64,000 nucleotides of DNA, from NCBI RefSeq assembly GCF_900167915.1, contig NZ_FUYM01000002.1, positions 496,001 through 560,000 of the forward strand, written 5' to 3'. The notes under the pieces were generated by a model, which worked only from the letters and a program-made list of their open reading frames with translations, did no database searches and was not told the DNA's origin. Positions within the stretch are counted from its first letter, which is position 1, and every line of letters begins with the position of its first letter. Of this stretch, positions 13,721 to 48,024 are shown one piece after another. The translations under genes were made by a program, and so were the position numbers. The DNA is from Rhizorhabdus histidinilytica. Lineage in GTDB: Bacteria > Pseudomonadota > Alphaproteobacteria > Sphingomonadales > Sphingomonadaceae.

Positions 13721-13808
13721 CGCGCAGTGGTTCCTGATTGCGGCATCCGCCGGCAAGGCCGCCGAAAGCGGCTCATTACCATCGTGGCCGGTGCTCGGCT
13801 AAGGCTTT

Positions 13809-15695: not shown

Positions 15696-18600
15696 ATGAC
15701 GGGGGGATTTCTACGGAGGCGCGCGGCCCGGCGCGCATTTGTGCGGGCGGGCGTCGAGCGCGACGGCGGGCGATGGGCGGCTGCGGCTGCGCAATATCGC
15801 CGTTACCTCCGCTATCGCCCCGATGATTTCGCGATCTGGGTGCAGCTTGGCCACATGCTGGGCGAGAGCGGCGATCCGGCGGGGGCCGACCAGGCCTATC
15901 GGACCGCGCATGCGCTGAACCCCGACGACGCCGATCTCGCCTTGTGCCGCGGGCACCTCGCCCGGCGCGGCGGCGATATCGAGGCGGCGATCGCCTTCTA
16001 TCGCCGCAGCTTCGAGATCGACGGCGACGAGCGTGCCGCGGGCGCGCTGGCGGAGCTCGAGGCCGAGACCGGCTGCGAGTCGGAGCCCGAACCGGCGCCG
16101 GCCCATGGCGGGCGGCTCGACGGCTGGTTCGAGCGGTCGGTCTCCGGCGTCCTGTCGGAGGAGGGCGTGGACGATCCCTGGGTCGTGTTCCGCGCCGGCG
16201 ACCGGCTGGTGGGGCAGGCGCGGCCGGGCCGCAACGAGGACGGTGTGCTCGAATTCCGCGCCACGCTCGATGTCGAGCTGGGTGAGAATGGCGAGGGAGT
16301 CGAGGTGATCGCCCGGCGCATGCCCGACGGCGCCATGCTCGAACCCGGACCGATCTTCCTCTTTCCGCCGTCGCGGCATCCCGCCGACCATGCGGTCGCC
16401 TGGTCGGTCCCGGCGGAGATCGTCAAGCCGTTCGACCTGCCGGCCGGGCGCGAGGTCGCGCTGTTCGTGACCCATTCGCGCTCGGGCAAGGTCAAGCCCA
16501 ATGTGCTACCCTATGTCCGCGCGCTCAAGCAGGCGGGGCTTGCCGTGTTCCTGGTCGCGACGGTCGACCGGCCCGTCGACCTCCCGGCCGAACTGCTCGA
16601 CAGCGTCGACGCGGCGATGGTCCGTCGCAATGCGGGCTACGACTTCGCCGCCTGGGCGCATGCGCTGAAGCTCCATCCCCGGCTGTTCGGGGCCGCGACC
16701 CTCTATCTCGTCAATGACAGCGTCGTGCCGGCGGCCGACGGCGCGCGGATCGGCGCGATCGTCGAGCGGGTCCGCCGCAGCGGCGCCGACCTGATCGGAC
16801 TGACCGAGAGCCATGAGTGGCGCTGGCACGTCCAGAGCTACTTCCTGGCGATCAAGCCGGGGCTGCTCGCGTCCCGCTCGTTCCACGGCTTCATGGACGA
16901 CGTCCGGCTGCTCACCCGCAAGGATCACGTCATCCGCGCCTATGAGGTGCGGTTGGCGGAGATCGCCGAGGAGGCCGGCCGTTCGGTCGAGATACTCTTC
17001 CCCAGCGCGACCGCGATCAACCCGACCTTGTTCGGATGGCGCGGGCTGGTCGAGCAGGGCATGCCCTTCGTCAAGGTGCTGCTGCTGCGCGGGACCTTCG
17101 ACGCGATCGACATCGGCGGCTGGCGGGAAGTCCTCGCCGATGCGGGGTTCGACGTCGCGCTTGCCGAGGCGACGATCGCGGCGGGGGCGGAGGAGGGGCC
17201 GGTCGACGACGGCGGCCGTCTGCTCGCGCGGCGCCTGCCCACCGGGCTGCAGGCCGATCGGCCGCTCAAGGTCGCCTTCTTCGGGCCCTGGAACTACGAC
17301 AACGGCCTCGGCCATGCCAGCCGCGGGATCATCGCCGCGATCCGGCGCACCGGCGTCCTGCTCAATCTCCATCCGGTCAAGCGGCCCTTCCACATCCACA
17401 AGCCGCTGGTCCCGCCTACCGACATCCTCGACTTCGAAGGCGTTCCCGACGTCGCGATCATCCATCTCAATCCCGACAGTTGGCATCTGCTGACCGACGA
17501 GCAGCACGCGACGATCGCGCAGGCGAAGCGCCGCATCGGCTATTGGGTGTGGGAAATGGGCCATATCCCGCCCGCCTGGCGCCGCAATTTCGGCGCGGTC
17601 GACCGGATCTGGGCGCCGAGCCGCTATTGCGCCGAGCTGTTCGCCGCGCAGGGCGGCGTGCCGGTCGACGTGGTCCCGCACGCCGTGCCGGTGGGCGAGC
17701 CGGCGACGGTCGATCGGGCCGGTGTGCTCGCCCGGCTCGGCCTGCCCGCCGATCGCCGGGTCATCCTCTACATATTCGACGGGTCGAGCTACCTGGTCCG
17801 CAAGAACCCGGCGGCGCTGGTCCGCGCCTTCTCGGCTTCCGGCCTTGCCGCGCGCGGCTGGTCGTTGCTGCTCAAGACCAAGCACCTCCACGACCGGCCG
17901 GAGGAGGGCGAAGCCTTCCGCGCGCTCGCCGAGGGGACCGAGGGCGTGGTGCTGATCGACCGGCCGATGGCGGCCGAGGAACTGGGCGAACTGAGGGCGC
18001 TCGCCGATCTCTACGCCTCGCCGCACTGCTCGGAGGGTTTCGGCCTGACGATCGCCGAGGCGATGGCGGCCGGCAAGCCGGTGGTCGCGACCGATTTTGG
18101 CGGCAGCCGCGACTTCCTCGACGCGTCGGTCGGCTGGCCGGTCAAGGCGCATCCCTGGCGGCTCGAGCAGGATTTCGGCCATTATGCCGAAGGCGGCGAT
18201 TGGGCACGGATCGACGAGCCGGCGCTCGCCGCCACGCTCGCGCGCGCGGCCGATGCGATCGAGGCGGGCGACGATGTCAAAGGCGCCGCTGCCCGCGAGC
18301 GGATCGCGGCGCAACTCTCCTACGAGGCGGTGGCCGAGCAGGTCGCGGCCAGCCTGGCGGCGCTGCGCGAGATGCCGGCCGGTGGCGGCGGCGTCCATGT
18401 CCAGCCCAATCTCCTGGCCGGCATGCCGGTCGAACAGGCGATCCTCGGTCCGGGACTGAGCCTCCTTGCCCTGGCACCCGACGGCGCGCTCGATAGGCCG
18501 CTGCCCGACGACCTGCCGACCGACCGGGACGCGTGGATCATTCTCGCGCCGCGCGGCGCCATCCTCGCGCCGATGATCGAGCGCGACTGGCGCGAGGCGG

Positions 18601-19856
18601 CCGATGCCCGGCCCGACGTCGGCATCTTCTATGGCGACGATTTCGCGGCGGGGGCCGAACGCGGGCTCGATCAGCTCCGGCTGAAGCCCGCCTTCGACCT
18701 GACCCTCCTCGCGGCGCAGGACTATATCGGCGCGCCGCTGATCGTCCGCGCCTCGGTGCTCGCTGAACTGGGCCTGCGCGCCGAGATGGGCACCGCCCTG
18801 CTCGACGACCTGCTGCTGCGCGCGCACCATGCCGGCGTCTCGATCGAGCGGGTCGCCAAGGTCCTGCTGCTCCATCCGGGGCCGCGGCCGCAGGCCGATC
18901 CGGTGGTCCGGCAGGCGATGCTCGCGGCGCAGCCGCGCTTCGTCCACCATCGCTTTCGTCCCGGCCGCGCGCCAGGCACGCTGGCGCAGGAGCGGTTGTT
19001 CGGCCGCGATCATCCGTCGGTGTCGCTGCTGGTTCCGACACGGCGAAGCAAGCTGCCCGGCGGGCGCACCGCCTATGTCGAGCGGCTGTTGAAGGCGCTG
19101 GTCGCCACCGATTGGCCGATGGACCGGCTGACCGTGATCGTCGGCGACGACGTCGCGGGTGAGCCGGCCTGGACGAAACGCGCCTGGCCCTTCGCGCTGC
19201 ACCGGATCGAGACGCTGCGCGGCGACGACGAGCCGTTCAACTATGCCGCGAAGATGAACCGGCTGTGGCGCGCCGCCGAGAGCGAGCAGATCGTGATGAT
19301 GAACGACGACCTGCTTCCCACCGAACCCGGCTGGCTCAAGGCGCTGATCGGCTTCACGATGGACGAAGGCGTCGGCGGCGCGGGCGGACGGCTGCTCTAT
19401 GAGGACGGCCGGCTCCAGCATGCCGGCATCGGTCCGCTGTTCGGCGCGATCGCCCATGTCTGGGCGGGACGCGAGACGGTCGCGGGCAGCTATCAGGACT
19501 GGGCGCTCGTCCAGCGCGAATGGTCGGCGGTGACGGGCGCGCTGTTCGCGACGCGGCGCTCGCTGATGGAGGAGGTCGGCGGCTTCGACGAGCAGTTCAC
19601 GCTCGAATATAACGATATCGACCTCTGCCTGCGGCTGCGCGCGCTGGGCTATCGGATCGTCTGCACGCCCGAGGCGGAGATGGTCCATGCCGAACGCGCC
19701 TCGCGCGGCGACATGCCTGCCGGCGGCGACCAATATGCCGCCTTCCACCAGCGGTGGAGGCGCTGGCTCGATGACGATCCCTCCTGGCATCCAGGTCTCA
19801 ACCGGGACAGCTTCGAGATGATGCCGATCGATGACCCCGGCGCCTGGTATCGCTGA
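15696..19856 (+). CDS. TPR / RgpF-like / GT4 / GT2 multi-domain glycosyltransferase
   Basis: A 1,386-residue fusion. Residues 18-125 are TPR-like helices (IWVQLGHMLGESGDPAGADQ). Residues about 250-500 resemble RgpF (RRNAGYDFAAWAHALK, then TLYLVNDSVV). Residues 520-890 are a GT-B domain with GPWNYDNGLGHASRGI and the donor-site segment EGFGLTIAEAMAAGKPVV near 780. Residues about 1,100-1,386 are a GT2 domain with VTVIVGDD-like and MMNDDLLP (near 1,203) acidic motifs and GGFDEQFTLEYNDIDLCLRL typical of rhamnosyl-type GT2 enzymes. It is divergent from the secretion operon and upstream of the 883-residue fusion. No good ribosome site precedes the ATG. It probably builds several linkages of a rhamnose-containing chain. 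Confidence 0.8.
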   Translation: MTGGFLRRRAARRAFVRAGVERDGGRWAAAAAQYRRYLRYRPDDFAIWVQLGHMLGESGDPAGADQAYRTAHALNPDDADLALCRGHLARRGGDIEAAIAFYRRSFEIDGDERAAGALAELEAETGCESEPEPAPAHGGRLDGWFERSVSGVLSEEGVDDPWVVFRAGDRLVGQARPGRNEDGVLEFRATLDVELGENGEGVEVIARRMPDGAMLEPGPIFLFPPSRHPADHAVAWSVPAEIVKPFDLPAGREVALFVTHSRSGKVKPNVLPYVRALKQAGLAVFLVATVDRPVDLPAELLDSVDAAMVRRNAGYDFAAWAHALKLHPRLFGAATLYLVNDSVVPAADGARIGAIVERVRRSGADLIGLTESHEWRWHVQSYFLAIKPGLLASRSFHGFMDDVRLLTRKDHVIRAYEVRLAEIAEEAGRSVEILFPSATAINPTLFGWRGLVEQGMPFVKVLLLRGTFDAIDIGGWREVLADAGFDVALAEATIAAGAEEGPVDDGGRLLARRLPTGLQADRPLKVAFFGPWNYDNGLGHASRGIIAAIRRTGVLLNLHPVKRPFHIHKPLVPPTDILDFEGVPDVAIIHLNPDSWHLLTDEQHATIAQAKRRIGYWVWEMGHIPPAWRRNFGAVDRIWAPSRYCAELFAAQGGVPVDVVPHAVPVGEPATVDRAGVLARLGLPADRRVILYIFDGSSYLVRKNPAALVRAFSASGLAARGWSLLLKTKHLHDRPEEGEAFRALAEGTEGVVLIDRPMAAEELGELRALADLYASPHCSEGFGLTIAEAMAAGKPVVATDFGGSRDFLDASVGWPVKAHPWRLEQDFGHYAEGGDWARIDEPALAATLARAADAIEAGDDVKGAAARERIAAQLSYEAVAEQVAASLAALREMPAGGGGVHVQPNLLAGMPVEQAILGPGLSLLALAPDGALDRPLPDDLPTDRDAWIILAPRGAILAPMIERDWREAADARPDVGIFYGDDFAAGAERGLDQLRLKPAFDLTLLAAQDYIGAPLIVRASVLAELGLRAEMGTALLDDLLLRAHHAGVSIERVAKVLLLHPGPRPQADPVVRQAMLAAQPRFVHHRFRPGRAPGTLAQERLFGRDHPSVSLLVPTRRSKLPGGRTAYVERLLKALVATDWPMDRLTVIVGDDVAGEPAWTKRAWPFALHRIETLRGDDEPFNYAAKMNRLWRAAESEQIVMMNDDLLPTEPGWLKALIGFTMDEGVGGAGGRLLYEDGRLQHAGIGPLFGAIAHVWAGRETVAGSYQDWALVQREWSAVTGALFATRRSLMEEVGGFDEQFTLEYNDIDLCLRLRALGYRIVCTPEAEMVHAERASRGDMPAGGDQYAAFHQRWRRWLDDDPSWHPGLNRDSFEMMPIDDPGAWYR

Positions 19857-19907: not shown

Positions 19908-22559
19908 ATGGCCACGCAGAAGCCTTTCGCCGACGATCAAACCGCTTCGGGAGCGGAGCTGCCGCCTGCCTTCGACGCCGGCTATTATCTGTCGGCCAAT
20001 CCCGACCTGGCGATCGCCGCCGATGCGGCCGCCGACCATTATGCCGCGACCGGCCGGGCCGAGGGCCGGGTCGCCTCGCCGCTCGCGCTGCGCGAGAATC
20101 TGATCGGGCTGATCGCCGACGGACGCTCGGTGCTGGAGATCGGGCCGTTCTGCCGCCCGCTGCTGCGCGGGCCGAACATCGCTTATCTCGACGTGCTCGA
20201 CGCTGGGCAGCTGCGCGCGCGGGCGGTGGAGGTCGGTGCCGATCCGGCCGGATGCCCCGCGCATATCGACTATGTTGGCGGGCTGGAGCAGGTGCGGCGG
20301 CGCTTCGACGCGGTGATCAGCAGCCATGCGATCGAGCATCAGCCGGACCTGATCCACCATCTCCAGCAGATCGAGCGGATATTGCAGGCTGACGGCCTGT
20401 TCTGCCTGATCGTCCCCGACAAGCGCTACTGCTTCGACCATTATATCGCCGAGAGCACGATCGCCGACGTGATCGAGGCGCACCGCGAACAGCGGCGGCG
20501 GCACAGTCTGGCGAGTGTGATCGAGCATCACGCGCTGACCACCCATAATGATCCGCGGCTCCACTGGGCCGGGGACCATGGCCCCGCCGTCCGGGCCGAC
20601 CGTGTGGCGCAGGTGGAAAAGGCGATGCGCAGCCATGACTTCAATCCCGGCCGCTATATCGACGTCCATGCCTGGTATTTCACGCCCGACAGCTTCCGCA
20701 CGACGATCGAGACGCTGACGGAACTTGGGCTGATCGGCCTCGAGCTGGCCGGGGTCTACGACACCGTGCGCGGCCGCAACGAGTTCTGCGCGGTGCTGCG
20801 CCTCGGCGCGGCGGCGCGGGCGCGGGTGCGCGAAGGCCGTGACGAGGGCGGGGTGCTGTTCCTCCAGACTGCCGACGCCGAACATTATGCGCCGATGCTG
20901 GCGATCACCGCCGCCGGCGTCCGCGAATATTGCCGCCGGCATGGCTTCGGCTACGAGAGCTTCCTCGGCGTCAAGCGCGGCTTCCATCCCTGGCAGGCGA
21001 CCTTCAACCGCATCCCGATGCTGGAGGAACTGGTCGCGCGCGGCTTCACCGGCTGGGCGGTCTATCTCGATGCCGATGCCTATATCCAGGATCTCGATTT
21101 CGACCTGGCCGCCTATCTCGCCGACAAGGGGGATCGTGCCGCGATCTTCGCGACCTCGGGGGTGACGGGCGAGCATTGGGACGTCAATGCCGGCGTCGCG
21201 CTGATCAACCTCGGCCATCCGCTCGGCCGCGAGCTGGTCGCGCGGTGGAGCGCCGCCTTCGCCGGGCATAGCGACGAGACGCTGCGCGACGCCACGGAAT
21301 GGATGGGCGCCGGCAACGACCAGGACTTGCTGCACAAGATATTGGAGCGGGACGAGGCGATCGCCCGGGCCGTGCTGGTCGAACCGATGAGCCTGCTCAA
21401 CGGACCGCAGGCCCGTTTCATCCGCCAACAGTTGCGGACCTTGGGCCCGACCCTGGAAGCCAGGACCGAGGCGTTGGCGAACGCGGTTTCCGCCGTCCTC
21501 CGCAACAATGGCGGCGGGCCGGTTCCCGCGACGGAGGCGGACCAGCGCTGGGCGGCGCGGTTCGCCCATCCCCAGGGACGCTTGCCGTCGCTGGTCGAGG
21601 CGCCGGTTCCGTCGCCCATGCTCGAACTGGCGGCCGGAATCGCCGGCATATGGTCGGCGGCGGGCGGCGCCGAGGAGCAGCCGCCCGGTTATCAGCGCGA
21701 CCTGGCCGATCGCCTGCATGCGGGCGACGCCGGGGCGGTCGCCGCGGAACTGGCGGCGCTCGGGCGCGCGCGGTCGGCGCAGGGCTTTCTCGGCGGTGCG
21801 CGGCAGCACGAGCGCGCCCGCGATCCCCGCTTCGCCGACCGGCTGGCGCGCTGGACCTATGACAAGCTCGTCTCGCTGGCCGAGGCGGTAGGCGTGCTGC
21901 GGCTCGAAAATCCGGAAAATGGCGGCTGGGGCGAAAATGCGCTGACCGACCCGGCCGAGCTGTTCGCGGCGGTCGAGGCGGTGCTGGACGCCGACCTTGC
22001 CCCGCCGGCATCGGTCGGCGGTCACCTCGGCATCGCGGTGGGGCGCAGCATCATCCTCCACATGCGGATGCTCGACGCGATCCATGCGGCGTGGCGGCTC
22101 CGCCAACTCGCCGACATGGCCGGTCTCGGACGCGACGCGTGCATCGCCGAGATCGGCGGTGGCGCCGGGTTGACCGCCTATTATGCGTCGCGTCTGGGCC
22201 TGGCCCGATACCGGCTGTTCGATACGCCGACGATGAACGTGATCCAGGCCTATCTGCTCGGCGGGGCGGCACAGCCGCAGCCGCTCGCCGGCTTCGCCGC
22301 GCAGGCGCCGGGATCGGTCGATATCCTGTTCAACAGCGATACCCTGCCCGGGATGGAGCGGTCGGCGGCGCTCGCCCATCTCCGCGACGCAGAGCGGATC
22401 GGCGTCCGCCACATCCTCAGCATCAACCAGGAAGCCGCCGTCCCCGGCCAGGCTCCGCTATCCGAACTCCTCCGCGAGACCGGCGGCTACCGTCTCGCCT
22501 CCCGCCATCGCCATTGGCTGCGGGCGGGTTATGTCGAGGAGCATTATCTCCGGACCTGA
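19908..22559 (+). CDS. Trifunctional methyltransferase - glycosyltransferase - sugar O-methyltransferase fusion
   Basis: An 883-residue protein in four parts. Residues 20-55 are the FDAGYYLSANPD...HYAATGRAEGR module. Residues 60-290 are a class I SAM methyltransferase (VLEIGPFCRP near 74, then SSHAIEHQPD). Residues 305-520 are a GT-A-like glycosyltransferase (FLQTADAEHYAPML, GVKRGFHPWQATFNR, VYLDADAYIQDLDFD near 385 with the DxD). Residues 600-883 resemble the putative sugar O-methyltransferase family (CIAEIGGGAGLTAYYASRLG near 745, then FDTPTMNVIQAYLLGG). The middle domain is a close relative of two stand-alone genes further on. It likely adds a sugar and methylates it, perhaps as a chain cap. 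This is inferred from domains only. Confidence 0.75.
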   Translation: MATQKPFADDQTASGAELPPAFDAGYYLSANPDLAIAADAAADHYAATGRAEGRVASPLALRENLIGLIADGRSVLEIGPFCRPLLRGPNIAYLDVLDAGQLRARAVEVGADPAGCPAHIDYVGGLEQVRRRFDAVISSHAIEHQPDLIHHLQQIERILQADGLFCLIVPDKRYCFDHYIAESTIADVIEAHREQRRRHSLASVIEHHALTTHNDPRLHWAGDHGPAVRADRVAQVEKAMRSHDFNPGRYIDVHAWYFTPDSFRTTIETLTELGLIGLELAGVYDTVRGRNEFCAVLRLGAAARARVREGRDEGGVLFLQTADAEHYAPMLAITAAGVREYCRRHGFGYESFLGVKRGFHPWQATFNRIPMLEELVARGFTGWAVYLDADAYIQDLDFDLAAYLADKGDRAAIFATSGVTGEHWDVNAGVALINLGHPLGRELVARWSAAFAGHSDETLRDATEWMGAGNDQDLLHKILERDEAIARAVLVEPMSLLNGPQARFIRQQLRTLGPTLEARTEALANAVSAVLRNNGGGPVPATEADQRWAARFAHPQGRLPSLVEAPVPSPMLELAAGIAGIWSAAGGAEEQPPGYQRDLADRLHAGDAGAVAAELAALGRARSAQGFLGGARQHERARDPRFADRLARWTYDKLVSLAEAVGVLRLENPENGGWGENALTDPAELFAAVEAVLDADLAPPASVGGHLGIAVGRSIILHMRMLDAIHAAWRLRQLADMAGLGRDACIAEIGGGAGLTAYYASRLGLARYRLFDTPTMNVIQAYLLGGAAQPQPLAGFAAQAPGSVDILFNSDTLPGMERSAALAHLRDAERIGVRHILSINQEAAVPGQAPLSELLRETGGYRLASRHRHWLRAGYVEEHYLRT

Positions 22560-22573
22560 CATCGCCGCTTCGC

Positions 22574-23182
22574 CTATCGGCAGGGCGTGTAGAGCATCAC
22601 CCGGATCTGCTCCCAGATCGGCGAGGAGAATTCGAGCACATACTGACCGCCGAAATCATAGGGCGCGGCGTTCAGGTCGAGGCAGCGGAAATCGCCGAAG
22701 TCGATATCGATGTTCCTGGCCGTGTCGAGCTTGTTGAAGGAGTTGGTCAGCAGGCATCTCGGATAGCGGCCGAACAGCTCGTCGCGGTGGCGGAAGACTT
22801 CCCGGTCCGGCAGATGCTGGAGCACGTCCTTCATGATCAGGAGGTCGGCGGCCGGCACCAGCGACAAATCCTCCGGCATCAGGTCGAACGAGACCTGCGC
22901 GCTTCCAAAGCGCTGCCGGTTGCGCTCCACGACGCTCGGGACAACGTCGAAACCATGATAGCGGACACCGTTCCAGTTGATCAGCCGCGAGAATTGCCAA
23001 TCGCCGCAGCCGATATCGACGACCGACCTGATGTCGTTGAGATGGATGAAGCGCTCCAGAAAGGCGCGATATTCGATCGTCCAATAGGGCAGCGACCCGT
23101 CGCCCGAATGCCCGCCCCAATGTGAATCATCGGCCTCGTAGTGACGGCGGAAGGCTTCGGTCAATTCGCTGTACGAACTCAT
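22574..23182 (-). CDS. Class I SAM-dependent methyltransferase
   Basis: About 202 residues. SAM motif I is SVVDIGCGDWQFSRLI near residues 51-66, followed by the acidic strand-2 end GFDVVPSVVE and the post-motif LLIMKDVLQHLPDRE. The family resembles small glycan or nodulation-type methyltransferases (SYSELTEAFRRHYEADDSHWGG at the N-terminus). ATG at 23182 is preferred with GAGGAA upstream; an ATG ten codons earlier lacks a ribosome site. It converges with the 883-residue fusion and is divergent from the next glycosyltransferase. The substrate is probably a sugar, judged from its neighbours. Confidence 0.75.
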   Translation of the reverse strand: MSSYSELTEAFRRHYEADDSHWGGHSGDGSLPYWTIEYRAFLERFIHLNDIRSVVDIGCGDWQFSRLINWNGVRYHGFDVVPSVVERNRQRFGSAQVSFDLMPEDLSLVPAADLLIMKDVLQHLPDREVFRHRDELFGRYPRCLLTNSFNKLDTARNIDIDFGDFRCLDLNAAPYDFGGQYVLEFSSPIWEQIRVMLYTPCR

Positions 23183-23371
23183 GGATCGAACCGTTCCTCT
23201 TACTTTCACCATGTGCGCCTAGCCTATCGCCGAACGCGACGAAACCGTTCCAACCCTCGGCAGCGCGTGCGTTGGTGGCCGGCTTGCACCATTTTGGTTG
23301 CAACGCACAAATACGGTGGAACTGTATCAGCGACGCCGGTAGCATCAATGTTGTTTCTTCTTCAACGAGTT

Positions 23372-24529
23372 ATGGCGACGATGACAGTAACGCTGGTCCA
23401 GACATCTGACGCGATCTTCTACTATCCCATGCTCGTCGAGACCGCCAGGACAGTGCGTGCCTTCTGCGCTCGTAACGGCTTCGCCTATGAGCAATATGTC
23501 GGCATCAAGCGTGGCCACATGCCGTGGCAGGCGACCTATAACCGGGTCTATATCCTGAAGGAGATGCTCGACCGCGGCATGCAGGGCTGGGTTCTCTATC
23601 TCGACGCCGATGCCTTCATTCAGGATCTGGACTTCGATCTCGGCCGCTACCTTGCCGAGCGGTCGAAGGTCGGCGCGATCTTTGCCGGATACAGCACCTG
23701 CGACACGGCGTACGACATCAATGCGGGCGGGTTCGCGATCAATCTCTCGCATCCCGTCGGCAAATCCATCATTCTGGATTGGTACCGGTCGGTGGCCGAC
23801 GTCCCGTCCGAGATATTCGAGGGCGCGGTCCATTGGGAGCATGATCTCGCCAACGACCAGCATCTCCTGTGGCAGATCCTCAAACGCTATGTGGAGGAGC
23901 TCGACCTGTCCGGCGACATCATCTTCGAACGTGCGAACCGGAGCTATGTGAACAACGGTCCCTTCATCGTTCAACTGCTGCGTTCATTTTACGATAGCTA
24001 TGCCGAACGGTTGGTCGCGTTGAAGAAGCGCGTGAACGAGGTCCTCGCGAAGGAAGAGGGGCTGGCCGAAGAGGAGGGCGCCGGCATCTACATGTCGACG
24101 CAGCATCCCAAGCTGGTGACCGCGTCGGGCCGCAAGACATTGCAGGGGATCGTATCGAACGCGCAACATGGCGGGCTCATGTTCGGGCCGTACATCCATG
24201 TTCCCGCCGGTCGATACAAGGCCCGCATCTTCGGCGAGGTGCGCATGGCGGAGGGGCAGACCCAACTCACGGTGCTGAGCGATGTGGCGACCGACCGAGG
24301 CTTCAAGGTGCCGGTCTCCCGCTATCTGGTCTTCGACGGACCGCGGCGGGGGATCGTCTCCGAATTGCGCTTCGAGCTGCCCGAGGACGTCCATGATCTG
24401 GAGGTGCGGCTGACGGTCGGGCCCGAGGCCGATGTCGTGCTCCATGCGATCCAGATTCTGCCGCTGCTCGGCGACGAGGCGCTCGATCCCGCACCGGAAC
24501 CGGCCCTGGGCGAGGTCTCGCCGGCCTAG
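23372..24529 (+). CDS. GT-A-like glycosyltransferase (paralogue 2 of the LQTSD/GVKRG family) with C-terminal beta domain
   Basis: About 385 residues. The N-terminal half repeats the middle domain of the 883-residue fusion: TVTLVQTSDAIFYYPML, GIKRGHMPWQATYNR and VLYLDADAFIQDLDFD with the DxD at about 72-74. It resembles GMA12/MNN10-type (GT34-like) galactosyl or mannosyl transferases. Residues about 240-370 form an extra beta-sandwich-like domain (GPYIHVPAGRYKARIFGEV) absent from the paralogues and possibly carbohydrate-binding. The start is the ATG before ATMTVTLVQ; an ATG three codons later is equally possible. The 5' region is less GC-rich than its surroundings. It is divergent from the small methyltransferase gene. 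Confidence 0.75.
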   Translation: MATMTVTLVQTSDAIFYYPMLVETARTVRAFCARNGFAYEQYVGIKRGHMPWQATYNRVYILKEMLDRGMQGWVLYLDADAFIQDLDFDLGRYLAERSKVGAIFAGYSTCDTAYDINAGGFAINLSHPVGKSIILDWYRSVADVPSEIFEGAVHWEHDLANDQHLLWQILKRYVEELDLSGDIIFERANRSYVNNGPFIVQLLRSFYDSYAERLVALKKRVNEVLAKEEGLAEEEGAGIYMSTQHPKLVTASGRKTLQGIVSNAQHGGLMFGPYIHVPAGRYKARIFGEVRMAEGQTQLTVLSDVATDRGFKVPVSRYLVFDGPRRGIVSELRFELPEDVHDLEVRLTVGPEADVVLHAIQILPLLGDEALDPAPEPALGEVSPA

Positions 24530-24561
24530 AGCGACTTCCAGGCGGATGGCTGATACGGGTC

Positions 24562-25608
24562 TCAGCCGCGCTGGCTGAAACTGTAGACCTGCGCCCAGTG
24601 CGAATTGGGATCGCGATATTCGGCGCAGTCGAAGCCGGCTCTATCGAATCGTCCGACCAGGAAATCCTTCTGGAAGCCCAGCTCCATCCAGCCGCGGATG
24701 CGCATGACCGCGACATTTTCCCAGTCGAGGCGAAAGCCCCACAGATAGGGCATGTCCGGGCACAGCACGTCGAAGATCGGTTCTCCGGCCATCAGGATCC
24801 GCCCGGTCGGCGTGAGCAGCTCTCGCAGCTTCGGGATCACCCGCTCGAAATCGAGGCAGTGGTGGAAGCTTTCATAGAAAAAGATCAGGTCATAGGCGCC
24901 GGGAACGCCCGCCGGATTATGGCCGAACTCGCCGACATGCGGATGGAGATCCACCTGATAGCGATCCGCCGAGGTCCGCACCGCCCGGCAGAAGGCGGGG
25001 TTGATGTCGACGGTGTCCACCTTCGCGCCGAGCCGCGCGAAGGAGAGGGCGGTCAGGCCGAAGCCTGCGCCATATTCCAGCACGCGCTGTCCCGGCGAAA
25101 TGCCGCTGCGCATCAGGATGTGCCCCATCGCCATCAGCTGTCCGCCGGCGAAGCTGGTATCACCCGATGCATAGAAGGCCGGCCGGAAGACCGCGTCGAG
25201 ATCGCCGATCTCGGGTGTGTCCTCGTTGCTCGCCGCCTGATAGCCGGAGCGATTGGTGATCGCTTCCCACAGACGCAGCATCTGGTCGAGATAAGCCTGG
25301 CCCGCTGGGTCCAGGGTGACGTCGAACCAGTCCGGAAGCTGCAGCGAATGGCCTTGCCAGCGCTCGCGGTCGCCCCGCTGGAAATCGGCGGCGACCTCGT
25401 CGAGCTGGTCGAGGGTGATCACCTTCGGCGCGGTGAGGCGTTGACGGTAGCTATCGCGGAACTCGTCCGATTGGAGCAGCGCGGTGAACAGGTCCGACCG
25501 ACTGGCGAAATGGCGGTGATGCTCGATGACCTGCTCATTCTCGGGTTCCCGGCCCAGGATGACCCGATAGCCGGCGATGACGTCGTCCCTACCGAGCATC
25601 TCAGCCAT
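24562..25608 (-). CDS. SAM-dependent methyltransferase with N-terminal DUF4214-like segment
   Basis: 348 residues. Residues 1-55 (VIAGYRVILGREPENEQVIE, then LLQSDEFRDSYRQR) look like a DUF4214-type helical segment. Residues 150-348 are a class I methyltransferase with VLEYGAGFGLTALSFARLGA (motif I), VDTVDINPAFCRAV and LIFFYESFHHCLDFERVIP. The ATG at 25608 overlaps the stop of the upstream glycosyltransferase by 8 bases (ATGGCTGA), indicating coupled translation. Its partner carries a DUF4214-like segment at its own C-terminus. It is the last gene of the operon containing the KpsM/KpsE genes. The likely role is methylation of the sugar added by the partner enzyme (inference). Confidence 0.75.
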   Translation of the reverse strand: MAEMLGRDDVIAGYRVILGREPENEQVIEHHRHFASRSDLFTALLQSDEFRDSYRQRLTAPKVITLDQLDEVAADFQRGDRERWQGHSLQLPDWFDVTLDPAGQAYLDQMLRLWEAITNRSGYQAASNEDTPEIGDLDAVFRPAFYASGDTSFAGGQLMAMGHILMRSGISPGQRVLEYGAGFGLTALSFARLGAKVDTVDINPAFCRAVRTSADRYQVDLHPHVGEFGHNPAGVPGAYDLIFFYESFHHCLDFERVIPKLRELLTPTGRILMAGEPIFDVLCPDMPYLWGFRLDWENVAVMRIRGWMELGFQKDFLVGRFDRAGFDCAEYRDPNSHWAQVYSFSQRG

Positions 25609-26503
25609 TCCCGTCCGGAACAGCTTCCGGGCGGTCGCGCGCCACTTCCGCGCGGATTCGAGCCCGATGTTCCGGACTGTCGAGTAGCAGGCGGACGACC
25701 TCCGGAATGCCATGTTCCAACCCCCTTGCGGCGATGAGCTGCGAATAGCCGACGCTCCCCCGGTCGGCCTCGCGCTTGAGTATGATCCGGTAGAGCTCGG
25801 AGACGACCGCGTCCTCGACGCTGCCCGATCCCGTCCCTGCGGCCCTGTGGAAGATATCCGCGACGGCGGCTTCGATCTTGTTCGTCCGGCTGTCGATATC
25901 GCCGTCGAGCGAGTTGAGCAGCTGCCGGATGAAGAGGCCCTGATGATGGTTGAACAGCATCGGATCGACGAACAGCGCCGGCGCACGGAGGCCGGCATCC
26001 TGATCGAGCGCCTGGTAGAGCATGGTCTGATCGTTGTCGTGGTCCCAGACCGAGGTCAGCGTGCGCAGCCGTTGGTCGGGAACGGCCATGAACCGCCGCT
26101 TCCACTCGCGCACCAGGGCAACGCCCTGAGGATGGCCCAGGTTGAAGAAGAGCACGCCCGAATTGATGTGCCAGGGAGTGGTCTCGCCCGGGATGGTCGT
26201 CATGATCGCCGACCGGTCCTGCTTGTCGGCAAGATAAGCCTTCAGATCGAAATCGAGGTCGAAGACATAGGCGTCAGCATCCATGTACAGCGCCCAGCCG
26301 CGATAGCCGCGATCGATCAGCTCCTCGAGCAGGAATATTCTGTTGAAGGCGGCCTGCGCGCCGTGGAAGCCGCGCTTGACGCCGACGAAGCTTTCATAGG
26401 CGAAGCCGTGGCGGCGGCAATATTCGATCGCAGTGCGCGACGTGGCCCGCAACATGCGACTATATTTGAACGCATCCGAAGTCTGGAGGATCGTCAGCTC
26501 CAA
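25601..26503 (-). CDS. GT-A-like glycosyltransferase (paralogue 3) with C-terminal DUF4214-like domain
   Basis: 300 residues. It shares LTILQTSDAFKYSRML, GFAYESFVGVKRGFHGAQ and ALYMDADAYVFDLDFD (DxD near residue 76-78) with the 883-residue fusion and the gene at 23372. The C-terminal 50 residues (LYRIILKREADRGSVGYSQL ... LLLDSPEHRAR) match the DUF4214 pattern. It starts at TTG: GGGGAG is seven bases upstream, and the first residues align with the paralogue start. It is co-directional with, and 89 bases after, the KpsE-like gene, and overlaps the methyltransferase that follows. The donor sugar is unknown. Confidence 0.75.
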   Translation of the reverse strand: MELTILQTSDAFKYSRMLRATSRTAIEYCRRHGFAYESFVGVKRGFHGAQAAFNRIFLLEELIDRGYRGWALYMDADAYVFDLDFDLKAYLADKQDRSAIMTTIPGETTPWHINSGVLFFNLGHPQGVALVREWKRRFMAVPDQRLRTLTSVWDHDNDQTMLYQALDQDAGLRAPALFVDPMLFNHHQGLFIRQLLNSLDGDIDSRTNKIEAAVADIFHRAAGTGSGSVEDAVVSELYRIILKREADRGSVGYSQLIAARGLEHGIPEVVRLLLDSPEHRARIRAEVARDRPEAVPDGNG

Positions 26504-26537
26504 ACCCGCACTCCCCTGTCACTGCATCGACATGCCA

Positions 26538-26557
26538 TCCCGCGGGTATACGCGGGA
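26538..26557 (-). other. Stem-loop between the KpsE-like and glycosyltransferase genes
   Basis: TCCCGCG and CGCGGGA are separated by six bases. There is no T-run in either direction, so it is not a classic terminator. In the middle of an apparent operon it may mark a processing or attenuation point. It lies just upstream of the TTG start region of paralogue 3. Confidence 0.35.
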
Positions 26558-26592
26558 GAGCCGTCATCCATTCCCAGCTTTTCCGAAACTTC

Positions 26593-27756
26593 CTACAACG
26601 AGTGCTCGCGCACGCCGGCGACCAGCAGCCAGCCGATGCCATAGGCGATCATCAGCGACAGGAACACCGTCAGCAGCATCTTGCCGCGCTCCGGGAATTC
26701 GGATTTCACCGGCATGTTCGGATCGACCACGCGGACGATGTAGAGCTGCTGCTTCATCGCCGCGTCACGCGCCTTTTCCAGGTTCGCCGCGGCGACCTCA
26801 TAGCGCTTCGCCGCGAATTCCTGCCGAATCTGGAGGTCCTGGTAGTTACCCAGCCGCGCCGCGGTCGATCCGCCGCCCGCGGTGAGCTTGCCCGCCTGAC
26901 CGGCGACCTGCGCCTCGAGCGCGCGGACCCGCGCGGCGACGGCGACATATTGCGGGCTGGTCGGGGCGATGATCCCCTGCATCGCGCTGAGCTGCGCGCG
27001 CGCAGTGGTAAGCTGGCCCTGCAGGGTCGCGATCAGGCTGAGCTGGGTCTTGCCCGAGACCTCAGGGTCGATGTCGCCGCGCTGCTGGCGGAAGGCGGTG
27101 AGCTGGCGCTGGATGTCGAACAGGCCCTGTTCGGCCTCGCCGAGCTGGCGGCGCGCATTCTTCAGCGCGTCGGTCTGGCTGCGCCGGTTGAGCATGTTGA
27201 CCCGCTCTTCGCCCATGCCCAGCAGCTGGTTGATGATCGCGTAGGAATCCTCCGGTCGGAACGAACGGACGCGCAGCGTGGTGATCCCGGTTTCCTGGTT
27301 GAACCGCACGTCCACCTGCTTGCGGTAGTAGCGCATCAGCATTTCCGGGGTCGGCTGCGAAAACCACAGCCGGGTGGCGATGTCGGCCTCCGGGCGGCGG
27401 AAGCGCTCGACCAGGTTCGCGCGCTGGTTGAGCAGGTTCACGGCCTGCTGCGAATCGAGATAGTCGTTGACGCTCATCGCTTCGCTGCGCGACTGCGACG
27501 CGCCGCCGCCGATCCCGAGCAGCTGGCTGAAGCCCATCGACGGCATCGGCGAGCTGTCCGCGGTGCGGACGATGAAGTGCGCCTCCGACTGATATTGGTC
27601 GGATGCGAACACATAATAATAGGCGGCGACGAGCAGGGTCGGCACCAGCACCACCAGCACGAACCACTTGTTGCGATAGGCCCAGCCGCGCAACATGTCC
27701 GGCCAGCGTTGCTCCGCGGCTTCCTGGCTGGCGTGGGGCTTGATGATTCCGTGCAT
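26593..27756 (-). CDS. Capsule polysaccharide export inner-membrane protein (KpsE/BexC/CtrB-like)
   Basis: 387 residues, with a polysaccharide co-polymerase type 3 layout. A cytoplasmic N-terminus is followed by a transmembrane helix at residues 30-48 (WFVLVVLVPTLLVAAYYYVF). A periplasmic part starts SDQYQSEAHFIVRT and continues with long alanine/glutamine-rich coiled coils. A second membrane helix near the C-terminus is KMLLTVFLSLMIAYGIGWLL. In ABC-dependent capsule systems it bridges the exporter to the outer-membrane channel. It follows the KpsM-like gene by 32 bases. No KpsD/Wza-type partner is adjacent; the Wza-like gene at 45820 belongs to the XrtA cluster. Confidence 0.88.
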   Translation of the reverse strand: MHGIIKPHASQEAAEQRWPDMLRGWAYRNKWFVLVVLVPTLLVAAYYYVFASDQYQSEAHFIVRTADSSPMPSMGFSQLLGIGGGASQSRSEAMSVNDYLDSQQAVNLLNQRANLVERFRRPEADIATRLWFSQPTPEMLMRYYRKQVDVRFNQETGITTLRVRSFRPEDSYAIINQLLGMGEERVNMLNRRSQTDALKNARRQLGEAEQGLFDIQRQLTAFRQQRGDIDPEVSGKTQLSLIATLQGQLTTARAQLSAMQGIIAPTSPQYVAVAARVRALEAQVAGQAGKLTAGGGSTAARLGNYQDLQIRQEFAAKRYEVAAANLEKARDAAMKQQLYIVRVVDPNMPVKSEFPERGKMLLTVFLSLMIAYGIGWLLVAGVREHSL

Positions 27757-27788: not shown

Positions 27789-28583
27789 TTAGTGCAGGTG
27801 GATGCGATTGCGAACCCGCCGAATGCCGATCAGGCCGGTATAGGTGAAAATGGCGCAGTTGGCGATGAGATAGCCGGGGAACAGATGCTTGTCCGACGCG
27901 GTTTCGAACATGCCGTAGCGGGTGATCTCGAAAATGTTGACCAGCGGGAACCAGTCGGCCGCGTTCTGGATGTAGACGGGTAGCCATTCCACCGCGAAGA
28001 AGGCGCCCGACAGCGGCATCATGAAATAGGATATCGGGTGGACGAGCCGCTGCAGCGTCGGTTTCTCGAAGGTGACCGCAGTGACGTTCAGGCCCCAGGC
28101 GAAGGATATCCAGATCATCCCGGCCACGCCGCCGATCGCCCAGAGCGGGCGGGCGGGCGGTTCGGCGAAGCCGAGCAGGATGATGATCGTGTACAGCAGG
28201 ACGAAGGTGGTGACGCACCCCGCCGCCTCGACCACGACGCGGGCCAGCGACAGGTTCAGCACCGATATCATCCGATGGTACATCAACGGCAGGCTGCTCT
28301 CCAGGATGCTCTCGGCCCGGTTGAAGATGCCGCGGAAGATGATGAAGACGCAGTAGCCGACCAGCGAGAAGGCGACCGGCGGCATCGTCGATCCGATATG
28401 GCCCGGCTGGAAGGCGTGGAGGGCGCCGATCACGGTCGCCAGCATCAGCGGCTCGCCGACCATCCACAGATAGCCGATATTGTTGCGGCCGAAGCGCGTG
28501 TGCAGCTCGCGCAGCACCAGCGCCCCGATCACGTCGAGCTGCAGGGTCAGGTCCCGGTAGAAGGAGGAACGGGTCGCCGTCAT
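27789..28583 (-). CDS. ABC-2 type polysaccharide export permease (KpsM/BexB/CtrC-like)
   Basis: 264 residues with six predicted membrane helices. The family start LQLDVIGALVLRELHTRFGR places an amphipathic segment before helix 1, as in KpsM. IGYLWMVGEPLMLATVIGAL and VHPISYFMMPLSGAFFAVEW are typical permease stretches. It would move lipid-linked glycan across the inner membrane with an ATPase partner. Its ATG overlaps the stop of the upstream GT4 gene by 4 bases (AAGGAGG lies in the complement direction of the other gene and is not used). The expected KpsT ATPase gene is not next to it or elsewhere in the window. Confidence 0.9.
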   Translation of the reverse strand: MTATRSSFYRDLTLQLDVIGALVLRELHTRFGRNNIGYLWMVGEPLMLATVIGALHAFQPGHIGSTMPPVAFSLVGYCVFIIFRGIFNRAESILESSLPLMYHRMISVLNLSLARVVVEAAGCVTTFVLLYTIIILLGFAEPPARPLWAIGGVAGMIWISFAWGLNVTAVTFEKPTLQRLVHPISYFMMPLSGAFFAVEWLPVYIQNAADWFPLVNIFEITRYGMFETASDKHLFPGYLIANCAIFTYTGLIGIRRVRNRIHLH

Positions 28584-29887
28584 GCGCCGCCGCTCCCGCC
28601 GGAATCGAGTTCGCGAACCAGGTCAAGCACGGTCGCGATATGCGCGCGCCACCCCGGCGGTGTCCAGCCCCGCAGCCGCTCGATCTGCCGATCGCGCCGT
28701 TCGGAGCGGTCGGCGGCATAGTCGAGGATCATGTCCGCCCAGGCGGGACCGTCGAGCGGATCGAGGAATTCGGGGACCGCGCCGCCCGCTTCGCGCAGCG
28801 CCGGCAGGTCGCTGCAGATCGCCGGCGTCCCGGCCATCAGCGCCTCGGTGACCGGCATGCCGAACCCTTCGGCAAAGGACGGCAGCAGCAGCGCGCGGGC
28901 GTTGCGGAGCAGCGCGGCGACCCCCCGGTCGGACAGGCCCGCCAGCTCATGGACGTGGCCCCGGATCGCCTCGCATCGTTCGAGCATGTCGAGGACGTTC
29001 TCATTCTCCCAGCCGCGCCGGCCGACGATCGCCAGGTGCGGCGTCCGTTCGGGGCCCAGCGTCTCCGCCATCCGCCGCCAGACGTGGAGCAGCAGCAGGT
29101 GGTTCTTGCGCGGCTCGATCGTGCTCAGCACGACGAAATAGGGGGAAGGGAGGGGCAGCGGCCCGTCTCCGCCTTCGGGCAGCGGGTCGCAGCCGAGATG
29201 GGCGACCCGGATCGGCGGCGGTGTGGTGCCGGTGAGGAAGCGGGCCATCGAATCCGCGGTGGCCTGGCTGTTGGCGATCAGGCCGTCCGCCAGTGAGGCC
29301 ATGGTGCCGATCCGCAGCCGGTGGGTCGCGGCGCCGTTGGGCCGCGCATATTCCGGGAATTCGATCGGGATCAGGTCGTGGACCAGGCAGATGAAGCGGG
29401 CCTGTTCCGCGCGCAGCTTGGCGCGGACGCGATCGGGGCGGTGCAGGTGATGCGGCGACGCCTGGACATAATAGCGGCGCACCCCCGGGGCGGGCCTGGG
29501 AACCGGACGGGGGGCGAGGCTGGCCAGCGTCCGCGCCGCGGCGATCGTCAGTGCCCCCCGGCCCGGCGCCGCGCGCTCCGCCCAGCGGGCTTCGGTCTCG
29601 TCGAGGAAGCGCAGCACCGCGGCATGCGGCAGCCGGCCGTAGACCCCGAACGGGTTGACCGCCGCGAAGCGCAGCCGATCGGGCACCAGGTCGAGAAGCT
29701 GGCGCGCATAGACCAGCTCGACCCGGTCGATGCCGGTCGGCATCGCGTGGAGCGTCCGCGACAGCAGGCGCGACAGGTCGAGGACGATCTCGACCCCGGC
29801 GGGCAGCAGCGGCGACGATGCGGCATCCCGCGGAGCAGCCAAGGTCGACATGGCGGCTGCTTTATCGCGTCGGACGCGCGCCGTCAT
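28580..29887 (-). CDS. Glycosyltransferase family 4 protein (TGIDRV subgroup)
   Basis: 435 residues. An N-terminal domain carries LHAMPTGIDRVELVYARQLL. The GT-B C-terminal domain begins VVLSTIEPRKNHLLLLHVWR, with the donor site LPSFAEGFGMPVTEALMAGT (EX7E type). The upstream gene ends 26 bases inside the chosen ATG, so translation is coupled. A second ATG 12 codons later is an alternative start that would remove most of the overlap. The TGI-RV signature is shared with the next upstream gene, so the two probably act one after another on the same chain. Mannosyl or rhamnosyl transfer is common in this subgroup, but specificity is not readable. Confidence 0.82.
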   Translation of the reverse strand: MTARVRRDKAAAMSTLAAPRDAASSPLLPAGVEIVLDLSRLLSRTLHAMPTGIDRVELVYARQLLDLVPDRLRFAAVNPFGVYGRLPHAAVLRFLDETEARWAERAAPGRGALTIAAARTLASLAPRPVPRPAPGVRRYYVQASPHHLHRPDRVRAKLRAEQARFICLVHDLIPIEFPEYARPNGAATHRLRIGTMASLADGLIANSQATADSMARFLTGTTPPPIRVAHLGCDPLPEGGDGPLPLPSPYFVVLSTIEPRKNHLLLLHVWRRMAETLGPERTPHLAIVGRRGWENENVLDMLERCEAIRGHVHELAGLSDRGVAALLRNARALLLPSFAEGFGMPVTEALMAGTPAICSDLPALREAGGAVPEFLDPLDGPAWADMILDYAADRSERRDRQIERLRGWTPPGWRAHIATVLDLVRELDSGGSGGA

Positions 29888-33027: not shown

Positions 33028-33037
33028 CGGAGAGACG

Positions 33038-34983: not shown

Positions 34984-34987
34984 TGGC

Positions 34988-48020: not shown

Positions 48021-48024
48021 CGGC

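What the first reader, a model, noticed from the sequence alone, without database searches (positions are those of the whole stretch)
19908..26503. Three copies of an unusual LQTSD/GVKRG glycosyltransferase, each linked to a methyltransferase
The genes at 19908 (internal domain), 23372 and 25601 share the order LQT(S/A)D, G(V/I)KRG, and a Y(L/M)DADA(Y/F)..DLDFD acidic motif. In the first, the glycosyltransferase is fused between two methyltransferase domains; the second has a divergent small methyltransferase neighbour; the third overlaps a methyltransferase gene by 8 bases. Seen directly: the shared motifs and the gene order. Inference: the enzyme pair adds a sugar and methylates it, perhaps as a chain-end cap that limits polymer length, as methyl caps do in some ABC-exported O-chains. 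I do not know of a described system with this triple arrangement.
Basis: partly seen in the sequence, partly recalled or inferred. Interest (0 to 1): 0.8.

Follow-up and report, generated by a model that had tools for sequence, protein, structure and literature searches.

The report
Sugar-adding enzymes paired with methylating enzymes
A bacterium of the Sphingomonas group carries three distantly related copies of a rare sugar-attaching enzyme, one of them fused to a methylating enzyme, in what looks like a capsule-building gene cluster; they probably attach and methylate sugars on the cell coat, a new twist on a known kind of enzyme.

Summary
Three open reading frames at 19908, 23372 and 25601 carry one homologous glycosyltransferase (GT) domain, related along its length, of a rare GT34-like family. 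They belong to three separate subfamilies, not recent duplicates. Gene 1 is methyltransferase (MT)-GT-C-terminal domain; the first MT is confirmed by profile, the last only probable. Gene 3 overlaps an MT gene by 8 bases. Gene 2 sits in a 1.3-kb segment that a close relative lacks.

The locus looks capsule-like: KpsM/KpsE-like export genes and rhamnose-synthesis genes, with KpsT/KpsD/KpsC/KpsS-like genes elsewhere in the genome. The proposed chain-end cap is not supported: no Wzt_C domain was found in the genome, and gene 1 shows no coiled-coil ruler by a crude test. MT coupling is lineage-specific: 24 of 38 full-length GT domains are fused to an MT or within 2 kb of one, but only 3 of 11 outside sphingomonads, and those rest on a weak MT match. 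In 3 of 13 fusions the GT lost the first Asp of DxD while the flanking domains persist.

A DUF4214-like module recurs on GTs and unrelated MTs. Best reading: sugar addition plus O-methylation on a capsule-type glycan; donor, acceptor and linkage untested.

The parts
20088..20804 (+). Gene 1 (19908-22559), N-terminal SAM methyltransferase domain
   Evidence: Pfam Methyltransf_23 33 bits (cut-off 27) and Methyltransf_11 25 bits (cut-off 21.2); conserved in the 13 fusions aligned
20853..21500 (+). Gene 1, middle GT34-like glycosyltransferase domain with YLDADAYIQDLDFD
   Evidence: Glyco_transf_34 18.9 bits (cut-off 23)
21714..22550 (+). Gene 1, C-terminal domain, probably a second class I methyltransferase (inferred from an AEIGGGAGL-type motif and weak PDB profile hits)
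   Evidence: first three hits MTs, E 0.13-0.55; no MT family match in Pfam
22574..23212 (-). Small methyltransferase gene (MT2, 212 aa), divergent from gene 2
   Evidence: Methyltransf_11 26.1 bits (cut-off 21.2); orthologue in Y57 (L027)
23372..24529 (+). Gene 2: GT34-like glycosyltransferase (385 aa) with an unassigned C-terminal region; lies in a segment absent from Y57
   Evidence: groups with a Gluconacetobacter entanii gene at 100/99; segment absent from L027; no Pfam family
25601..26503 (-). Gene 3: GT34-like glycosyltransferase (300 aa)
   Evidence: Glyco_transf_34 18.6 bits (cut-off 23)
25658..25795 (-). DUF4214-like C-terminal module of gene 3 (weak)
   Evidence: local profile of the MT N-terminal modules, i-Evalue 9e-5 in a 9-protein search; no Pfam DUF4214 match
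24562..25608 (-). Methyltransferase gene MT3, overlapping gene 3 by 8 bases; DUF4214-like N-terminal module at about 25435-25599
   Evidence: Methyltransf_12 42.9 bits (cut-off 30); module by eye, and it helped build the local profile; no Pfam DUF4214 match
26593..27726 (-). KpsE/BexC/CtrB-like polysaccharide export protein
   Evidence: TIGR01010 250.8 bits (cut-off 437.5)
27789..28583 (-). KpsM-like ABC-2 permease
   Evidence: PF01061 38.9 bits (cut-off 26.9); NF050053 77.1 bits (cut-off 300)
28580..32216 (-). Two GT4 glycosyltransferase genes (435 aa; 784 aa with TPR)
15696..19856 (+). Giant TPR-RgpF-GT4-GT2 glycosyltransferase directly upstream of gene 1
   Evidence: homologue in 10 of the 12 other gene-1 loci (not in L034; the stretch held of L032 begins at gene 1)
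32470..35857 (+). dTDP-L-rhamnose synthesis genes rmlC, rmlB, rmlD, rmlA (ORFs 32470-33027, 32930-34096, 34036-34983, 34898-35857; starts uncertain)
   Evidence: dTDP_sugar_isom 218.8 bits, GDP_Man_Dehyd 294.2, RmlD_sub_bind 327.6, NTP_transferase 254.8; gene names rmlB and rmlA inferred from family and order

Best explanation
The three genes encode members of one rare GT-A, GT34-like, metal-dependent glycosyltransferase family working in a capsule-type polysaccharide locus. Each adds one sugar to the glycan being built. The MTs fused to them (gene 1), overlapping them (gene 3/MT3) or next to them (gene 2/MT2) O-methylate that sugar or a neighbouring one, giving a methylated side or end decoration. 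L-rhamnose (from dTDP-L-rhamnose) is the most likely sugar added or methylated because its synthesis genes lie 6-9 kb from gene 3.

The decoration seems to vary from strain to strain: the stretch between gene 1 and gene 3 holds different MT genes in different genomes, and gene 2 lies in a segment absent from a close relative. Several of these GTs and MTs share a short DUF4214-like module that may dock them together.

Shown: homology, domain order, gene order, presence/absence of gene 2, loss of the first DxD Asp in some orthologues. Inferred: catalysis, donor, acceptor, methyl position, docking.
For: GT fold: Glyco_transf_34 is the only GT family seen for gene 1 and gene 3 (18.9 and 18.6 bits, below the cut-off of 23), and one of seven other members tested, L036, passes it at 26.4. 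The family profile finds just two distinct PDB sequences up to E 10, both GT34 kin: PBCV-1 A064R domain 1 (2p6w, E 0.29) and plant xyloglucan xylosyltransferase XXT5 (9p3j, E 0.54). The acid pair D75/D77 (gene 3 numbering) is invariant in 23 of 23 aligned rows.

MT link. Separate pairings: the MT-GT-C-terminal fusion; gene 3-MT3; a 302-aa MT after the GT in L048 (Methyltransf_23 53.4 bits, cut-off 27); and, weaker, a gene family 27-33 bp downstream of the GT in L035, L041 and L045, of which only the L041 protein has an MT match (Methyltransf_24 21.8 bits, cut-off 26.3).

Capsule setting: KpsM/KpsE-like genes in the window. Both have homologues in 9 of the 13 gene-1 loci, window included (with L027, L028, L030, L031, L032, L046, L049, L050); L029 shows KpsE only; L033, L034 and L047 show neither in the stretch held. 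KpsE and KpsM lie in L048, KpsE in L085, and KpsT/KpsD-like genes in L084. In the genome: a KpsT-like ATPase, KpsC/KpsS and a KpsD-like protein. rml genes.

Variable MT zone and shared module. Gene 2 segment.
Against: No enzyme was assayed and no structure could be predicted (the machine was busy at every attempt). GT34 scores of the window's own domains are below Pfam's cut-off, and gene 2 has no Pfam match. The C-terminal domain of gene 1 is not shown to be an MT. KpsT-, KpsD-, KpsC- and KpsS-like genes lie on other contigs, so that they serve this locus is inferred. A type I secretion system and an RTX protein gene lie next door, so the acceptor could be a protein. Outside sphingomonads 8 of 11 full-length GT domains have no MT within 2 kb, and the 3 linked ones rest on the weak Methyltransf_24 match; without that family the counts are 20 of 38 and 0 of 11. 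Rhamnose is a guess from gene neighbourhood.
Confidence: 0.55

Rival explanations
1. The enzymes glycosylate and methylate a protein exported by the neighbouring type I secretion system (the RTX protein at 8151-9530, or a surface adhesin), not a capsule.
For: TolC/ABC/HlyD genes 10587-15533 and an RTX protein (134 bits) next door. T1SS homologues lie in the gene-1 loci L046, L047, L049 and L050/L086, and an RTX homologue in L033. HlyD and a T1SS ABC protein lie beside the GT in Roseomonas (L089), and HlyD about 8 kb from it in Azospirillum (L087), with transposase and recombinase genes between.
Against: KpsM/KpsE-like export genes and GT genes lie directly beside gene 3 and both Kps genes are found in 9 of 13 gene-1 loci. 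L048, L084 and L085 have Kps-type genes near the GT but no T1SS homologue in the stretch held. No acceptor site was looked for.
Confidence: 0.2
2. One reading: GT plus MT make a non-reducing-end methyl cap that stops chain growth and is recognised by the ABC exporter, as in WbdD/Wzt or WsaE systems.
For: MT-GT fusion near ABC export genes; WsaE is a described MT-GT-GT protein that methylates a rhamnose, with a 2-O-methyl terminus on the glycan (PMC2943079 passages).
Against: No Wzt_C match in the genome, with the control search positive in 2 of 14 genomes. No long run without Pro/Gly in gene 1 (a crude test). Kps-type exporter. Three different GT+MT units plus variable MTs fit decoration better than one terminator (inference).
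Confidence: 0.12
3. The linkage is only hitch-hiking of unrelated transferase genes within a variable, MT-rich polysaccharide island; GT and MT act on different glycans.
For: MTs are common in these loci: 20 of 56 control GT4/GT2 domains and 1208 of 4000 random stretches lie within 2 kb of one. 8 of 11 non-sphingomonad GT domains are unlinked. The GT domain decays without loss of the flanking domains.
Against: 10 of 38 full-length GT domains are fused to an MT against 0 of 56 controls; the fusion is kept in 13 genomes (rows chosen as fusions); the gene 3-MT3 overlap.
Confidence: 0.13

Closest known systems
PBCV-1 (chlorovirus) A064R
   Same: Multidomain protein; its first domain is described as GT34-like in fold, retaining and Mn-dependent, with a DXD motif (a beta-L-rhamnosyltransferase); a third domain is a SAM methyltransferase that methylates O-2 of the terminal rhamnose (PMC9614988 passages). 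It is the best PDB hit of the family profile, though at E 0.29.
   Different: A064R is GT-GT-MT from a virus of algae and acts on capsid N-glycans; gene 1 is MT-GT-C-terminal domain in a bacterial capsule-type locus, with two further GT copies.
WsaE of Geobacillus stearothermophilus (S-layer glycan)
   Same: N-terminal MT fused to GTs, in a cluster with rml and ABC export genes; implicated in the 2-O-methyl rhamnose terminus (PMC2943079 passages).
   Different: WsaE has one MT and two GT domains and its glycan is exported by Wzm/Wzt. Here a GT34-like domain sits between two domains and the exporter genes are Kps-like.
WbdD and Klebsiella O4/O7 terminators
   Same: Terminators (MT-containing in WbdD and O7) in ABC-dependent polysaccharide loci (PMC11231755 passages).
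   Different: They carry a coiled-coil ruler; gene 1 shows little room for one, and no Wzt_C was found in the genome.
Pfam PF05637 / CAZy GT34 (yeast GMA12/MNN10, plant xylosyltransferases)
   Same: The DxD region matches this family, and it is the only GT family matched by genes 1 and 3.
   Different: Window domains score below the family cut-off; the family here is rare and found mostly in sphingomonads.

Membership tests
GT34 (PF05637 Glyco_transf_34) | Score over the curated cut-off (23 bits) | tested here: inconclusive
   Gene 1 18.9, gene 3 18.6, gene 2 none; of seven other members tested L036 26.4 passes, L085 20.9, L034 19.7 and L043 19.7 do not, and L037, L038 and L089 show no GT34 match
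GT34 (PF05637 Glyco_transf_34) | DxD metal-binding motif in a GT-A domain | tested here: inconclusive
   D75 and D77 invariant in 23 of 23 rows, so the motif is met; first Asp lost in the gene-1 orthologues L031, L049, L050, whose gene-1 GT domains are not among those rows. The GT-A fold itself was not predicted
ABC-dependent chain terminators (WbdD/WsaE kind) | Methyltransferase (or other terminator) domain | tested here: met
   N-terminal MT of gene 1
ABC-dependent chain terminators (WbdD/WsaE kind) | Coiled-coil molecular ruler | tested here: not met
   Longest run without P or G is 45 residues, inside the N-terminal MT; a crude test, no coiled-coil predictor run
ABC-dependent chain terminators (WbdD/WsaE kind) | Exporter ATPase with cap-binding Wzt_C domain | tested here: not met
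   No PF14524 match in the genome, control positive in 2 of 14 genomes
Group 2-type capsule (Kps) locus | KpsM, KpsE, KpsT, KpsD, KpsC/KpsS | tested here: inconclusive
   KpsM- and KpsE-like in the window but under NCBIfam cut-offs; KpsT-like ATPase on C25, KpsD-like Poly_export+SLBB on C25 and KpsC/KpsS (PF05159) on C26; not in one cluster
A064R-type trifunctional enzyme | GT34-like domain + second GT + MT in one protein | tested here: not met
   Gene 1 shows one GT domain between an MT and a C-terminal domain
A064R-type trifunctional enzyme | Transfers and methylates rhamnose | not testable with these tools
   Needs biochemistry

The most novel reading that the evidence does not exclude
The DUF4214-like module is a docking tag that gathers interchangeable GTs and O-methyltransferases of unrelated families onto one glycan-modifying assembly. 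Strains swap tagged MTs in the zone between gene 1 and gene 3 to change their surface methylation. In some lineages the GT of the MT-GT-C-terminal fusion has lost catalysis and survives as a structural or binding domain between the two others (a pseudo-glycosyltransferase).
Probability: 0.2. Interest if true: 0.7.

Novelty: new variant of a known kind. Interest (0 to 1): 0.45.

Why it matters
O-methylated sugars on bacterial surfaces can affect recognition by phages, hosts and antibodies (general knowledge, not from a call), and the enzymes that place them are known in few cases (recalled). This locus offers a compact set: an MT-GT-C-terminal fusion, a GT/MT overlap pair, a third copy present in one strain and absent from a close relative, natural orthologues with a decayed GT, and different MTs in different strains. 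That makes the coupling of sugar addition and methylation testable by single-gene deletions in an environmental genus. It also points to a rare bacterial GT34-like family, most of whose tested members score under Pfam's threshold.

Tried and rejected
Recent tandem triplication was rejected: the three GT domains lie in separate clades, gene 1 with gene-1 orthologues, gene 3 with gene-3 orthologues, gene 2 with Gluconacetobacter entanii (the G. entanii row was flagged there for unusual letter make-up).

Viral or phage origin: no match in 50,697 phage records, and 0 of 95 pattern-matched stretches of viral contigs confirmed.

Wzt-recognised cap: disfavoured. One loss of the GT for all three decayed orthologues: the N-terminal MT tree forces at least two changes (1% of bootstrap trees with one), but the C-terminal tree allows one (46%, bootstrap not settled), so two losses are likely, not shown.

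G770 was first counted as a hit (E 5.6e-4) but its protein matches GT8 weakly; not counted as a member. G937 and G974 are weak GT34-like relatives, not counted as members.

Structure prediction: 25 calls (A6: 35, 39, 47, 49, 52, 59, 63, 66, 69, 71, 73, 76, 78, 80, 89, 93, 96, 101, 103, 106, 108, 110; A5: 36, 54, 87) all answered that the machine was busy; no model, so no fold search.

Literature searches that gave nothing useful: (listed only the review already seen in passages). One search listed Caulobacter S-layer papers that I did not open.

Rows dropped before counts: L081, L082, L083, L086 (same records as L034, L035, L033, L050, judged by contig) and L088 (a second Azospirillum argentinense strain, near-copy of L087). 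Six short GT pieces (L031, L039 twice, L044, L049, L050) were left out of the tree and are counted apart. One search uses a 2-kb distance, not a two-gene rule. Its MTs were found with profiles grown from 12 seeds that I had noticed near these GTs, so other MT types could be missed and the comparison leans towards the GTs. The random stretches exclude the window. The Methyltransf_24-like seed rests on one below-cut-off match; its L045 and L035 relatives have no Pfam match. SpoU rRNA methylase beside the Acidocella GT was not counted as an MT.

One search used guessed starts for rmlB/rmlD/rmlA (a partial-codon warning was printed), so its RmlB rows are unreliable; the gene identities rest.


Full report
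WHAT IS THERE. The window lies in a genome of the genus whose named relatives are recorded as Rhizorhabdus or Sphingomonas (G000:C28:496001-560000; names from the records). Gene 1 (19908-22559 +) encodes 883 residues: an N-terminal MT (Methyltransf_23, Methyltransf_11), a GT domain at about 316-535, and a C-terminal domain. Gene 2 (23372-24529 +) and gene 3 (25601-26503 -) carry the same GT domain. An MT gene (24562-25608 -) overlaps gene 3 by 8 bases if its ATG at 25608 is used, and a small MT gene (22574-23212 -) lies between genes 1 and 2.

ARE THE THREE RELATED? Yes. Pairwise BLASTP gives E 5e-65, 4e-52 and 2e-44, and the stretches before and after the acidic motif match separately (weakest 1e-7). 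In a tree of 38 full-length domains from the loci held, the gene-1 domains, the gene-3 domains and gene 2 are in three separate places. Gene 2 pairs with Gluconacetobacter entanii at 100/99, a row flagged for unusual letter make-up. Against the close relative Y57 (L027), window 22302-23266 and 24564-26700 align at 85-86% while the 1.3 kb between, which holds gene 2, is replaced by about 0.2 kb: gene 2 was gained here or lost there.

WHICH GT FAMILY? The only Pfam GT match of genes 1 and 3 is GT34 (18.9 and 18.6 bits, cut-off 23). Of seven other members tested, L036 passes at 26.4, three score 19.7-20.9 and three show no GT34 match. Profile search of the PDB up to E 10 gives two distinct sequences, A064R domain 1 and plant XXT5, at non-significant E 0.29 and 0.54, but both GT34 kin and both over the DxD region. 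The family is rare. It is found in the own genome and in 11 of 13 congeners, and in 0 of 46 other relatives. In 397 family genomes there are 14 with a hit including the own genome, in two genera. In 387 class genomes: the own, one good hit and one that proved GT8-like. In 397 phylum genomes: the own and two weak GT34-like ones. There are 19 loci in named species genomes and 3 plasmids; no phage record matched and no viral contig was confirmed.

THE FUSION. Thirteen fusions orthologous to gene 1 were aligned. In ten the GT is intact. In L031, L049 and L050 the first Asp of DxD is Gly and 41-52 positions of the GT are gapped, while the N-terminal MT stays 75-78% and the C-terminal domain 56-61% identical to the window's. 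The open frame is kept over about 850-900 residues. L031 and L050 still have a full-length GT of the gene-3 clade; the genome of L049 (G011) shows no other hit. The N-terminal MT tree asks for at least two losses; the C-terminal tree does not resolve it. So the flanking domains seem able to outlive the GT's catalysis; that they are active is not shown.

THE C-TERMINAL DOMAIN. Seven orthologues scanned against Pfam at E up to 1 give no MT family; the single match is Nif11 at E 0.22. A profile of 13 rows lists 7 PDB sequences up to E 10; the first three are SAM methyltransferases at E 0.13-0.55, a fourth MT is at 1.1, and three are not MTs (E 0.73-1.1). The AEIGGGAGL-type motif is conserved in outline. 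I treat it as a probable MT, not a shown one.

THE MT LINK. Of 38 full-length GT domains, 10 are fused to an MT, 14 have one within 2 kb, 5 further away, and 9 none in the stretch held. Controls in the same loci: 0 of 56 GT4/GT2 domains fused and 20 of 56 within 2 kb; 1208 of 4000 random stretches (window excluded) within 2 kb. The rows are not independent: most come from one genus; and the MT profiles were seeded from MTs I noticed near these GTs. Outside sphingomonads (L036, L037, L040, L041 twice, L042, L043, L045, L085, L087, L089) 3 of 11 are linked, those of L041 and L045, by a gene 27-33 bp downstream of the nearest GT. That gene's MT nature rests on one Methyltransf_24 match of 21.8 bits against a cut-off of 26.3 in L041; its L045 and L035 relatives match no Pfam family. 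Leaving it out gives 20 of 38 overall and 0 of 11 outside sphingomonads. In Acidocella (L037) the GT follows a SpoU rRNA methylase gene, not counted. So linkage is real in sphingomonads and not a rule for the family.

A SHARED MODULE AND A VARIABLE ZONE. Between gene 1 and gene 3 different genomes hold different MT genes: Methyltransf_12/25-type (L028, L029, L031, L046, L050), FkbM-type (L028, L029, L030; L047 just after gene 1), or the small MT of the window (window, L027, L030). Nine of these proteins of the first two kinds begin with a module of about 50 residues that reads like DUF4214 (sequences; L047's FkbM protein lacks it). Pfam DUF4214 is over its cut-off in L030's 317-aa protein (24.9 against 23.2) and below it in L029's 299-aa protein (18.7); the other proteins show no DUF4214 match, so there the likeness is to each other and by eye. 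A local profile built from twelve such N-termini finds the module at the C-terminus of the Azospirillum GT (twice), near the N-terminus of the Limnohabitans GT (twice), in the C-terminal part of one Sphingomonas GT (L035) and, weakly, in the tail of gene 3 (i-Evalue 9e-5 in a 9-protein search). Pfam sees DUF4214 under its cut-off in the tails of the L037 and L038 GTs (22.4 and 19.8). A search for papers holding DUF4214, glycosyltransferase and methyltransferase found none in the library. Its role as a docking part is inference.

SETTING. Beside gene 3 are KpsE- and KpsM-like genes (250.8 and 77.1 bits, below the cut-offs of 437.5 and 300), GT4 genes, and the four dTDP-L-rhamnose genes. Upstream are a giant TPR-RgpF-GT4-GT2 protein, a type I secretion set, an RTX protein and two sulfotransferase-like genes, one just under its cut-off. 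The genome has KpsT- and KpsD-like genes on C25 and a KpsC/KpsS-like pair on C26. That is most of the parts list of a group 2-type capsule (the list itself is recalled), spread over three contigs. No Wzt_C was found.

HOW IT LIKELY WORKS. From the domain families: the GT transfers a sugar from a nucleotide donor with metal (GT34-like, DxD), and the MTs methylate hydroxyls using SAM. A064R shows that such a domain can be a rhamnosyltransferase in a polypeptide that also methylates the terminal rhamnose (PMC9614988 passages), and WsaE is an MT-GT fusion implicated in a methylated rhamnose end (PMC2943079 passages). With rhamnose genes nearby, a methylated rhamnose decoration of a capsule-type glycan is my best guess. 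The coiled-coil ruler described as characteristic of ABC-dependent terminators (PMC11231755 passages) is not apparent in gene 1, and no Wzt_C was found, so chain-length control is not supported.

VERDICT. It is a new variant of a known kind (MT-GT multidomain glycan enzymes). Whether the arrangement is in print was checked only by the searches, whose listings showed no description of it.

Noticed in passing
window 8151-15533 (-): A type I secretion set (TolC, ABC, HlyD), a sulfotransferase and an RTX protein in a row next to the glycan genes; another sulfotransferase-like gene at 363-1643 (just under the Pfam cut-off). Sulfation of the same coat or protein is possible.
   Followed up: partly
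window 46500-49131 (+): A second chain-length/kinase-like pair (Wzz/GNVR and AAA_31 hits), apparently a separate exopolysaccharide cluster.
   Followed up: no
L031:11034-13571, L049:8786-11347, L050:11471-14029: Gene-1 orthologues whose GT domain lost the first Asp of DxD while the flanking domains stayed conserved.
   Followed up: partly
L047:13736-14017 and 14096-16347: A stand-alone 93-aa DUF4214-like open reading frame followed by IS21-type transposase genes (Mu-transpos_C_2, IstB_IS21); possibly a methyltransferase gene cut by an insertion. Described only.
   Followed up: partly
L051:9476-10294, L052:10073-10831: GT34-like genes at other sites in two Rhizorhabdus genomes, beside an amino-acid permease (L051) or PMT_2-like and GGDEF genes (L052), with no methyltransferase found in the stretch held.
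   Followed up: partly
L040, L049, L084, L085: WcbI-domain proteins near this GT in L040, L049 and L084 and a GSCFA domain in L040; in L085 a KpsE domain follows an unassigned N-terminal part.
   Followed up: no
window 23141-23372: Gene 2 has an upstream extension of its open frame to GTG 23141; the start at ATG 23372 or 23381 fits the domain better, and 23213-23371 has third-position GC of 0.49 against 0.81 for the gene.
   Followed up: partly
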